Positions 1,372 to 20,506 of a stretch of 20,506 bases of DNA are shown piece by piece. Made by a program: the position numbers and the translations under genes. Each line of letters begins with the position of its first letter. Position 1 is the stretch's first letter. The notes below the pieces were generated by a model. That model did no database searches. It was not told the origin of the DNA and saw nothing but the letters and a program-made list of their open reading frames with translations. Source of the stretch: a virus; IMG/VR virus record IMGVR_UViG_3300025138_000491, positions 1 to 20,506 of that record; one strand, 5' to 3'.

Positions 1372-1857
1372 TTATACTTGTTTAACATCATCAGGCTCAA
1401 GGATCGTAGCAATGACTTCATCATCATTGATTATACGAACCTCCCCACCATCAATCTTGAATCGAGAACCAGAGTAACGACCAATGCAAACCCATTGACC
1501 CTCCTTGCACCACGGCTCACACTCAGACCCAAACTTATCTGGATCTTTGTATGCCAAGGGTCCAACCTTCATCACGTATGCTACAGTCGTAGCTACGGAC
1601 TCACGTTCTCTCACTTCATCAGGGATATATAAGCCACTCGCAGTTTTAGATTTGCCCTGATACGGCATAACTAAAACCCGCCAACCAGTTGGTTGCGGGA
1701 GTCTTTCGAGTAACGGTTTGTCTAAGAGGGACGGGTCTAACACCCGTTCATTAGCGTCAACATATGCGCTATTCAAAGAATCAGAGGACTTAACCCCTTC
1801 TTTTTCTTTGTTAACTTTCTGCGCAAGATGTTCAGGAAGATATAAGGTCTTCGACAT
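1372..1857 (-). CDS. Phage GroES-like co-chaperonin (Cpn10 family)
   Basis: 161 residues, longer than bacterial GroES (about 97) because of an N-terminal extension of roughly 55 residues. The Cpn10 barrel begins at GWRVLVMPY (58-66). The mobile loop that would dock on GroEL is SKTASGLYIPD (70-80), followed by strand AYVMKVGP (93-100), a Cys-containing insertion (SECEPWCKEG, 111-120) and the closing VRIINDDEVIATI (140-152). Such proteins act with host GroEL to fold phage head proteins, as T4 gp31 does for gp23. The neighbouring scaffold gene fits that job. The start overlaps the 3' end of the 71-aa gene by 26 nt, suggesting translational coupling. The Shine-Dalgarno match is weak: GGAG is about 13 nt away. 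Confidence 0.85.
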   Translation of the reverse strand: MSKTLYLPEHLAQKVNKEKEGVKSSDSLNSAYVDANERVLDPSLLDKPLLERLPQPTGWRVLVMPYQGKSKTASGLYIPDEVRERESVATTVAYVMKVGPLAYKDPDKFGSECEPWCKEGQWVCIGRYSGSRFKIDGGEVRIINDDEVIATILEPDDVKQV

Positions 1858-18703: not shown

Positions 18704-18909
18704 TGACTGAGATACACATAGATACGATTGCTTATCTAGAGGCTCGTAGCGGTGCAGATGCGATAGCGACATTCGCACATGATGAATTGTACACACTGTG
18801 TGCACCTATAATTGAGAAGTGGGTTGCTAAACAGGGAGCTTACATACTGACCGAAAGTTGTGAGTTAGACATAACAATACCTAATGTTGAGGAGTTCGAG
18901 AATGACTAG
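18703..18909 (+). CDS. Small early protein (68 aa), unknown
   Basis: 68 residues: MTEIHIDTIAYLEARSGADA followed by helix IATFAHDELYTLCAPIIEKW, then a beta-type tail YILTESCELDITIPNVEEF. ATG 18703 overlaps the previous TGA (TGATG). GAGGAGGAAG is about 7 nt upstream. It overlaps the zinc-finger protein gene by 8 nt. No family recognised. The consistent overlap and codon use support a real gene. Confidence 0.7.
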   Translation: MTEIHIDTIAYLEARSGADAIATFAHDELYTLCAPIIEKWVAKQGAYILTESCELDITIPNVEEFEND

Positions 18910-19132
18910 TGTTGATCCGATTGAGATTATGTTGAGCGAGATATTCGACAAGGTATTTTACAACAAGCACCAAGGTCCAAGGGCCGAGGTATGTGAAGAC
19001 TGTGACGGAGTTGGGTGGGTTGAGGCTGAGTTCGTTCGCCCACAAAACTTTGACAGGGACGTTGGATATCTGGATACTAAACGTGTGGACTGTGAGGAGT
19101 GCGGTGGCACTGGATTTATGGAGGAAGAATAA
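18902..19132 (+). CDS. DnaJ-type zinc-finger protein (76 aa)
   Basis: 76 residues from ATG 18902 (MTSVDPIEIMLSEIFDKVFY); a TTG 18 nt earlier is less likely. Two CxxCxGxG half-sites are visible: CEDCDGVGW (31-39) and CEECGGTGF (64-72). Each half-site of two Cys would combine to bind one zinc, as in the DnaJ Cys-rich domain. The spacer of 29 residues is longer than in tightly spaced DnaJ repeats. There is no J domain. Related small phage proteins may bind protein or nucleic acid; the target is unknown. Confidence 0.78.
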   Translation: MTSVDPIEIMLSEIFDKVFYNKHQGPRAEVCEDCDGVGWVEAEFVRPQNFDRDVGYLDTKRVDCEECGGTGFMEEE

Positions 19133-19395
19133 TGACGGAAGAAGGTAGGATTATAAACAGGAGGGATTTGAAGAGGGCAATCAATTCAATTTGCATTGTG
19201 TACAAGGATGGGGAGCACAAGGTTAAGTGCCACATGCCTGAGATGGAGCAGATGCGGATTAAGAATGAGGACTTGGACTTATTGTATTTATTGACGGAGG
19301 CACTGTCGGATGCAGCAAACGAGGCCGAGCACTTGGAGAAGAAGGGAGAACTTACGTTCTCGATTGCAGACTTGAAGGGATCGAGCGATGGATAA
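19132..19395 (+). CDS. Early protein (87 aa), unknown
   Basis: 87 residues from ATG 19132 (MTEEGRIINRRDLKRAINSI), overlapping the previous TAA as TAATG. GGAGGAAG lies upstream in the previous gene. It contains a basic helix (RRDLKRAINSICIVYKDG), a strand with CHMPEMEQ, and a Leu-rich acidic helix (DLDLLYLLTEALSDAANEAE). The C-terminus ends in LTFSIADLKGSSDG. No family recognised. The overlap with the next gene is 8 nt. Confidence 0.7.
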   Translation: MTEEGRIINRRDLKRAINSICIVYKDGEHKVKCHMPEMEQMRIKNEDLDLLYLLTEALSDAANEAEHLEKKGELTFSIADLKGSSDG

Positions 19396-19585
19396 CAGGG
19401 TATGTATGCACTACGTGATCGACAGGATTGAGGACATCATAAACTTACATGATCCTAAAAAACCAGAGATTGCAGATATGAAGTATATGCACAAAGCTTT
19501 GGAAGAGTTCAAACGCGAATGTATCTACAACTTGGGTGTCAATGTACGCATCGATTACAAGGGAATAGTTGATGAAGACATATGA
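19388..19585 (+). CDS. Small early protein (65 aa), unknown
   Basis: 65 residues, largely helical: MDNRVCMHYVIDRIEDIINL, then ADMKYMHKALEEFKRECIYN, ending with a beta-like VNVRIDYKGIVDEDI. ATG 19388 overlaps the end of the previous gene. Its last 14 nt overlap the next gene in another frame. No motif recognised. Its Shine-Dalgarno is weak (AAGGGA), so coupling to upstream translation is likely. Confidence 0.65.
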   Translation: MDNRVCMHYVIDRIEDIINLHDPKKPEIADMKYMHKALEEFKRECIYNLGVNVRIDYKGIVDEDI

Positions 19586-19751
19586 AATAACATGTGAGGG
19601 CATGGTAAGTAGAACTATCATGGTTGACGCTAACGATTTGAGTGAAGCGGTCAGCCAAGCAAGAAAAGAGTTTTCGCTCCTTGTGGGTGCGAAAGAAGAG
19701 GATGTTGAAGTAGCGGACATCTATGAAAACAATTTATTTAACAGGAGGTGA
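19572..19751 (+). CDS. Small early protein (59 aa), unknown
   Basis: 59 residues from ATG 19572 (MKTYEITCEGMVSRTIMVDA), since the TTG just before gives no better ribosome site. Strand, strand, helix (NDLSEAVSQARKEFSLLVGA), strand (DVEVADIYENN) is the order of a small swapped beta-alpha domain, resembling the short helix-flanked strand proteins common in phage early regions. It overlaps the previous gene by 14 nt and ends three bases before the next ATG. Confidence 0.65.
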   Translation: MKTYEITCEGMVSRTIMVDANDLSEAVSQARKEFSLLVGAKEEDVEVADIYENNLFNRR

Positions 19752-19754
19752 GTA

Positions 19755-20267
19755 ATGAACCAGAGAATTAGTTTAGTACGTTTAGCGGTGGAGAGAGCGT
19801 GGGCAGATGCTGCCAATGCAACCGAAGCCAAGGACAGGTATCTTGAGATGCTCAAGACGGATGAAGCGTTGCGGACGGAGGCAACGGCTCGATACTTGGA
19901 GAAGATCGCACATTGGGACACGGTTGTACGTCCGACGTTGGATCGTCATTTGTTCAAGAAGCACGTTCTGAGCAAGGGAGAGAAATCGACACCGAATGTA
20001 TCGCGTAAGAACACGATGAAGATGTATGCGAAAGATTTGTTTGAGACACTCAGGTTGCCTGAGACAGGTGTGAAGCTTGGGGAGGCAACTCGTCAGGACT
20101 TGGATAAGGCTATATCGTTTGAGAAGTCTAGGGCGCAGCATCATACGCACCAACAGAGTTTTTGGTCCTCGATACAGAAGCGTCTTAAAAAAGACGATGC
20201 AGTGGTCAAGGATGTTTGGACACCAGTAGAGGTGGAGCAAGCTTACGAGGAGATACTGAACAAATGA
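19755..20267 (+). CDS. Helical early protein (170 aa), unknown
   Basis: 170 residues from ATG 19755, with AGGAGG about 8 nt upstream. The first 65 residues form a long helix (LVRLAVERAWADAANATEAK, then RTEATARYLEKIAHWD) with coiled-coil character. The centre is basic (HLFKKHVLSKGEKSTPNVSRK), and two further helices follow (MYAKDLFETLRL, DKAISFEKSRAQHH). No known motif. It is the last gene before the tandem hairpin array, and its stop TGA shares its A with the first base of the array repeat. Confidence 0.72.
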   Translation: MNQRISLVRLAVERAWADAANATEAKDRYLEMLKTDEALRTEATARYLEKIAHWDTVVRPTLDRHLFKKHVLSKGEKSTPNVSRKNTMKMYAKDLFETLRLPETGVKLGEATRQDLDKAISFEKSRAQHHTHQQSFWSSIQKRLKKDDAVVKDVWTPVEVEQAYEEILNK

Positions 20268-20274
20268 TTAGTTA

Positions 20275-20322
20275 TGGGAGCCGTCATGACTGCGCAGCAA
20301 TGCCCATGGAGGGTCGCTCCCA
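20275..20322 (+). ncRNA. Hairpin A1
   Basis: Outer stem TGGGAGC (20275-20281) pairs with GCTCCCA (20316-20322). Inside, CATG (20285-20288) can pair with CATG (20305-20308), and the apex reads GCA-GCAA-TGC (20294-20303), a 3-bp stem with a GNRA tetraloop. Confidence 0.6.
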
Positions 20323-20329
20323 CCAGTTA

Positions 20330-20381
20330 GGGGAGGGTCAATTATCCACCACAGGAATGTCAGGTGTGGTCCACCCTCCTC
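20330..20381 (+). ncRNA. Hairpin B1
   Basis: Outer stem GGGGAGGGT (20330-20338) pairs with 20373-20381, nine pairs with one G-U. Inside, CACC pairs with GGTG, and the apex is ACA-GGAA-TGT (20351-20360), a GNRA tetraloop on a stem whose outer pair is A-U instead of G-C. Confidence 0.6.
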
Positions 20382-20391
20382 TATTAGTTTA

Positions 20392-20439
20392 TGGGAGCCA
20401 AGGATCAAACGCAGAAATGCCAATGCGCTACCGCTCTCA
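20392..20439 (+). ncRNA. Hairpin A2
   Basis: Outer stem TGGGAGC (20392-20398) pairs with GCTCTCA (20433-20439), one G-U replacing a G-C of A1. The apex is GCA-GAAA-TGC (20411-20420). The 17-mer CGCAGAAATGCCAATGC (20410-20426) is identical in B2. Confidence 0.6.
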
Positions 20440-20440
20440 A

Positions 20441-20492
20441 GGGGAGGGTCAGACTATGCACGCAGAAATGCCAATGCCGAATTGCCCTTCCC
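20441..20492 (+). ncRNA. Hairpin B2
   Basis: Outer stem GGGGAGGGT (20441-20449) pairs with GCCCTTCCC (20484-20492), nine pairs including two G-U. The apex is GCA-GAAA-TGC (20462-20471), identical to A2. Confidence 0.6.
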
Positions 20493-20506
20493 GATTAGTT
20501 TATGGG

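What the first reader, a model, noticed from the sequence alone, without database searches (positions are those of the whole stretch)
20294..20471. Apical GNRA tetraloops with a compensatory pair in all four array hairpins
The apices read GCA-GCAA-TGC (20294-20303), ACA-GGAA-TGT (20351-20360), GCA-GAAA-TGC (20411-20420) and GCA-GAAA-TGC (20462-20471). All four loops obey GNRA, using three different variants, and copy B1 changes both sides of the closing G-C to A-U. That is the pattern expected under selection for RNA structure rather than DNA sequence. GNRA loops dock into receptors or bind proteins, so the units could contact each other or a shared partner.
Basis: partly seen in the sequence, partly recalled or inferred. 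Interest (0 to 1): 0.75.

Follow-up and report, generated by a model that had tools for sequence, protein, structure and literature searches.

The report
Phage TIGR guide-RNA array, GNRA-capped
The four small hairpins are the first units of a phage array of split guide RNAs (a TIGR-Tas system described in 2025); the GNRA loops are the conserved caps between the two 9-letter guide halves of each unit, so this is a well-supported new member of a recently discovered kind rather than a new phenomenon.

Summary
In detail: four units at 20275-20492 carry GNRA-capped apices, and one swaps G-C for A-U. The interpretation stops short of what it is. The window ends inside a stem-loop TIGR (Tandem Interspaced Guide RNA) array. 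Each unit reads: outer stem, box C (YCA), 9-nt spacer A, box D (CR), CA-GNRA-UG loop repeat, box C, 9-nt spacer B, box D, outer stem. In 56 related phage contigs I found 413 units; 400 have spacers of exactly 9+9 nt. In units chosen only by their outer stem, 223 of 262 (85%) have GNRA loops, and loop and outer pairs covary. In relatives the array lies directly upstream of a TasA-like protein that matches TasR (PDB 9MTY, E 7e-12) and NCBIfam TIGR_Tas_endo (19 of 19 members, E about 1e-22, below its curated cut-off). The tasA gene itself lies beyond the window's end. Most likely the transcript is cut into one guide per hairpin, and a nuclease-less TasA dimer uses each guide to bind DNA matching spacer A followed by the reverse complement of spacer B. 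No self-targets were found; real targets remain unknown. Inter-unit tetraloop docking is unsupported.

The parts
20275..20506 (+). Stem-loop TIGR array, truncated by the end of the record (four complete units and the start of a fifth)
   Evidence: complete arrays in relatives L008, L011-L015
20275..20322 (+). Unit 1: stem TGGGAG/CTCCCA; box C CCG 20281-20283; spacer A TCATGACTG 20284-20292; box D CG; loop CA-GCAA-TG 20295-20302; box C CCC; spacer B ATGGAGGGT 20306-20314; box D CG
   Evidence: close copies in G003, G005, G035, G039 and G042. Folded alone, its minimum-energy structure is a different fold
20328..20383 (+). Unit 2: stem TAGGGGAGGG/CCCTCCTCTA; box C TCA; spacer A ATTATCCAC 20341-20349; box D CA; loop CA-GGAA-TG 20352-20359; box C TCA; spacer B GGTGTGGTC 20363-20371; box D CA (the A-U variant)
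   Evidence: fold z -2.8; homologue in L008
20392..20439 (+). Unit 3: stem TGGGAG/CTCTCA; box C CCA; spacer A AGGATCAAA 20401-20409; box D CG; loop CA-GAAA-TG 20412-20419; box C CCA; spacer B ATGCGCTAC 20423-20431; box D CG
   Evidence: identical spacers in G039, G042, G043 and c124
20441..20492 (+). Unit 4: stem GGGGAGGG/CCCTTCCC; box C TCA; spacer A GACTATGCA 20452-20460; box D CG; loop CA-GAAA-TG 20463-20470; box C CCA; spacer B ATGCCGAAT 20474-20482; box D TG
   Evidence: fold z -2.7; identical spacers in G001-G003
20494..20506 (+). Linker and the first bases of unit 5's stem (ATTAGTTTATGGG), cut by the end of the record
   Evidence: repeat D3; complete next unit in L008
19755..20267 (+). 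Gene directly upstream of the array (170 aa, unknown function); its relatives were used to find the complete arrays

Best explanation
The hairpins are guide-RNA units of a phage stem-loop TIGR array. The long transcript is cut into single hairpins, each a guide RNA with two 9-nt spacers. A dimer of the TasA-like Nop-domain protein, encoded just downstream in relatives, grips the edge through box C/box D (YCA/CR), and grips the GNRA-capped loop repeat through an equivalent second pair of boxes. The two spacers then pair with opposite strands of a DNA target reading spacer A, 0-2 bp, reverse complement of spacer B. The Tas protein here lacks the N-terminal nuclease, so the expected effect is sequence-specific binding (blocking transcription, replication or packaging of a competitor) rather than cutting. 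The GNRA loop most likely acts as a stable cap that keeps the loop-side box C/D pair formed. Shown here: unit anatomy, covariation, GNRA preference, linkage to a TasA-like gene in relatives, unit turnover, no detectable self-targets. Inferred by homology: processing, protein binding, DNA binding and effect.
For: Unit anatomy with 9+9 spacers in 400 of 413 units from 56 related contigs. GNRA and covarying pairs in the loop, box C/D pairs and outer stem. Spacer positions are near-random (1.86-2.0 bits), boxes are conserved. The protein downstream of the array in relatives matches TasR 9MTY (profile E 6.6e-12), NCBIfam TIGR_Tas_endo in 19 of 19 members and a 'transposase' phrog; rough AlphaFold models (pLDDT 62-63) still rank TasR and TasH complexes first. 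The published stem-loop TIGR arrays share this architecture: two 8-12 nt spacers flanked by boxes C and D, palindromic edges, loops sometimes of conserved length and sequence; published TasR boxes are CCA and UG with a Watson-Crick pair between them. A distant relative, Rhizobium phage RHph_X2_25, and related contigs carry TasA-like proteins at 31-38% identity with stem-loop units built from CCA, 9 nt, CG, a short loop, CCA, 9 nt, CG.
Against: tasA itself is not in the 20,506-base record; it is seen only in relatives with the same upstream gene (67-99% identical protein). The member shown scores below the curated cut-off of TIGR_Tas_endo (81 against 100 bits). The AlphaFold models are of low confidence. 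No expression data. No target could be established. Unit 1 on its own folds differently.
Confidence: 0.9

Rival explanations
1. The TasA-bound hairpins direct the phage's own physiology: guides bind sites in the phage genome to time gene expression, replication or packaging.
For: The protein lacks a nuclease, so binding its own genome would not be lethal; the array sits among small genes on the + strand.
Against: No own-contig enrichment of targets: the distribution of the best match of each unit to its own contig equals that of mispaired spacers (17 of 398 units, 4.3%, at 3 mismatches and none at 2 or fewer, against 3.9% and 0.6% for mispaired). Many contigs are partial.
Confidence: 0.08
2. 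The array is a decoy or structural RNA: GNRA hairpins titrate a host RNA-binding protein or nuclease, or dock with each other.
For: Strong structure with GNRA caps.
Against: Exactly 9 variable nucleotides on each side of the loop, linkage to a Tas protein, no 11-nt receptor.
Confidence: 0.03
3. The hairpins act as DNA, for example as recombination or integron-like sites recognised as folded strands.
For: Units move as modules between arrays.
Against: Folded as DNA, the complementary strand is no better than shuffles (z -0.1); the GNRA rule and box C/D covariation are RNA features.
Confidence: 0.02

Closest known systems
Stem-loop TIGR arrays with TasA (Faure et al. 2025, PMC12045711)
   Same: Tandem hairpins beside a nuclease-less Nop-domain protein, palindromic variable edges, two spacers flanked by boxes C and D, found in phages
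   Different: Here the loop repeat is highly conserved and is a GNRA-capped mini-hairpin (YR-CA-GNRA-UG-YCA); edge stems come in short (about 5 bp) and long (8 or more bp) kinds, which alternate in the window; unit content changes quickly between relatives
Dual-repeat TIGR arrays with TasR/TasH
   Same: 9-nt spacers, box C CCA, box D YR with a Watson-Crick pair, loop repeat with a tetraloop-like cap
   Different: Those have short edge repeats and 36-nt guides without long stems, and nuclease domains; here the edges are long variable stems
IS110 bridge RNA / box C/D snoRNA
   Same: Same Nop-type protein superfamily (NCBIfam transpos_IS110 also hits, E about 1e-6) and split guides
   Different: No room for a recombinase N-terminal domain in the 234-245 aa protein; an array of many units instead of one bridge RNA; no K-turn consensus seen

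Membership tests
TIGR-Tas, stem-loop type | Tandem hairpins with two variable 8-12 nt spacers each | tested here: met
   9+9 nt in 400 of 413 units; four units in the window
[quoted passage not shown]
   Box C YCA, box D CR; edge pair 94% and loop pair 92% formed, above all 500 shuffles
TIGR-Tas, stem-loop type | Variable but palindromic edges forming a stem | tested here: met
   Stem pairs 1-4 formed in 96-99% of core-anchored units, with GC, AT and TA types
TIGR-Tas, stem-loop type | Adjacent Tas protein with a Nop domain | tested here: met
   Met in relatives: match to TasR 9MTY and TIGR_Tas_endo; the Pfam scan gave no Nop hit. The window record ends before this gene
TIGR-Tas, stem-loop type | NCBIfam TIGR_Tas_endo curated score reached (a naming threshold, not a feature the authors use to define the family) | tested here: not met
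   80.9 bits against 100 for L016; the model is named for endonucleases, and this protein aligns to its C-terminal part (42-215 of 215)
TIGR-Tas, stem-loop type | Array transcribed and processed into single guides bound by Tas | not testable with these tools
   needs RNA sequencing and pull-down
TIGR-Tas, stem-loop type | Tandem-spacer DNA targeting | tested here: inconclusive
   No self-targets; no significant excess of targets in related phages
GNRA tetraloop-receptor docking | 11-nt receptor near the loops | tested here: not met

The most novel reading that the evidence does not exclude
These rapidly turning-over arrays are phage weapons against rival phages: TasA guides of one lineage bind genes of another TIGR-carrying lineage. 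Two units of one sub-group match, with one mismatch and a 2-bp gap, the small-terminase-like gene and a site beside a terminator in another sub-group; the excess over mispaired spacers is not significant.
Probability: 0.15. Interest if true: 0.8.

Novelty: new member of a known kind. Interest (0 to 1): 0.5.

Why it matters
Natural targets, spacer origins and processing of TIGR systems are open questions (PMC12045711). This phage family gives hundreds of natural units with an unusually clear anatomy, close relatives that differ in units while the flanking DNA is about 90% identical, and a simple loop (GNRA cap) whose need can be tested by mutation. It is a good natural data set for finding TIGR targets.

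Tried and rejected
Rfam: no match at gathering thresholds. DNA similarity in the phage collection: none. Pfam: no real domain. A bacterial-genome scan for TasA: no relative. Target search with spacer A + gap + reverse complement of spacer B in about 1.07 Mb of related phage contigs: two units with at most one mismatch at gap 2, against 0.67 expected by mispairing (maximum 2 in 12 shuffles), not significant. Exact scans of the viral collection with the two most shared units gave 7 and 1 matches, most at gap 2, but the gap-2 matches to the first read in frame as a common peptide, I-Y-D-x-G-N, in otherwise different genes (two of them the same sequence twice), so they look like a coincidence of codons. 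A coding-signal test on spacers was weak (z 1.5 at gap 2, 1.3 at gap 0, -2.1 at gap 1). Substitution spacing between homologous spacers shows no period of three. Folding the whole 242-nt stretch gives only a mild z of -1.35 because units cross-pair. AlphaFold models stayed at pLDDT 62-63.

Full report
Observation. The four apices stand at the stated coordinates and all obey GNRA: GCAA, GGAA, GAAA, GAAA; unit 2 carries A-U where the others carry G-C. Folded alone, units 2, 3 and 4 form the expected hairpins (fold z -2.8, -1.1 and -2.7), while unit 1 prefers another fold.

Full array. The window is a viral record of 20,506 bases, and the array is cut off by its end. Relatives found through the gene just upstream or by a repeat sequence hold complete arrays. 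The nearest, G003, is about 91% identical to the window over 18902-20451, yet its recognised units read u7 u8 u1 u5 u4 u9 u6 u10 against u1 u2 u3 u4 in the window. Units are therefore gained, lost and moved as modules. Twenty pairs of units share one spacer but not the other, so half-unit exchange or separate divergence of one spacer also occurs.

Anatomy. Across 56 contigs with arrays, 413 units were parsed, 400 with spacers of exactly 9 and 9 nt. The parser allowed 8-10 nt and preferred 9 when stems were equal, so 9 is favoured mildly by the method. The scheme is outer stem (4-10 bp), box C (YCA), spacer A, box D (CR), CA-GNRA-UG, box C, spacer B, box D, outer stem. Spacer positions carry 1.86-2.0 bits of entropy each.

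Structure tests. To avoid circularity, units were chosen in two ways. Chosen by outer stem only, 262 distinct units show 85% GNRA, and the three loop pairs form in 92%, 95% and 95% against shuffle means of 77%, 89% and 84%. Chosen by loop core only, 278 distinct units show the edge box pair in 94% (shuffles 79%) and stem pairs 1 to 4 in 96-99%. Shuffles do not remove relatedness between units, so they are a guide, not a probability. Changes away from GAAA obey GNRA: position 3 is changed to G in 16 units and never to C or T.

The protein. Immediately downstream of the array, relatives encode a 234-245 aa protein (19 sequences aligned). It matches the TasR structure 9MTY (9MTY is confirmed as TasR in PMC12045711), NCBIfam TIGR_Tas_endo in 19 of 19 members, and more weakly IS110. 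The match covers residues 139-294 of the 331-residue TasR, so the N-terminal nuclease part is missing: a TasA. Low-confidence models still place TasR and TasH complexes at the top of the PDB search.

Known kind. Faure et al. 2025 (PMC12045711) describe stem-loop TIGR arrays with TasA, palindromic edges, two 8-12 nt spacers, boxes C and D, and in some cases loops of conserved length and sequence. TasR boxes are CCA and UG, paired, and the loop repeat forms a tetraloop-like cap without clear specific protein contact. The present array fits this in each tested defining point; the NCBIfam naming cut-off is not reached. The GNRA mini-hairpin as loop repeat was not found in the literature held (no paper with both 'GNRA' and 'tigRNA'). 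In distantly related rhizobial phages (TasA-like protein 31-38% identical) the loop is shorter, for example CG-AAAA-CCA, with the same boxes and 9-nt spacers.

Targets. From the published 8-nt 3' overhangs and cut rule I derived the target as spacer A + 0-2 bp + reverse complement of spacer B. Own contigs hold no excess of such sites. Related phages hold two near-matches, both at gap 2, in a small-terminase-like gene and beside a terminator-like hairpin of another sub-group that also carries TIGR arrays; this is not significant against mispaired spacers. Natural targets therefore remain unknown.

Tetraloop docking. The 11-nt receptor half CCUAAG does not occur in the window's array, and both halves occur together near only 2 of 56 arrays. 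Docking between units is not supported.

Conclusion. The finding is real and best explained as the loop repeats of a stem-loop TIGR array whose tasA lies just beyond the record's end (0.9). It is a new member of a recently described kind, useful because its units are numerous, regular and fast-changing.

Noticed in passing
L147 (MW960032.1, Rhizobium phage RHph_X2_25) 2652-4926: A phage with a named host (Sinorhizobium americanum) and a repressor gene carries a TasA-like gene annotated as hypothetical, with stem-loop units on both sides; a possible laboratory model.
   Followed up: partly
window 1372-1857: By reading of its sequence, a GroES-like co-chaperonin gene in the minus-strand gene block; no family search was run on it.
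   Followed up: no
L008 2706-3101 and L011 4817-5059: Small genes directly downstream of tasA look by eye like helix-turn-helix regulators, and differ between sub-groups.
   Followed up: no
linkers between units, e.g. window 20384-20391: Linkers between hairpins are short and recurrent (such as GATTAGTTTAC, CCAGTTA, ACCTTACAACA), possibly processing sites.
   Followed up: partly
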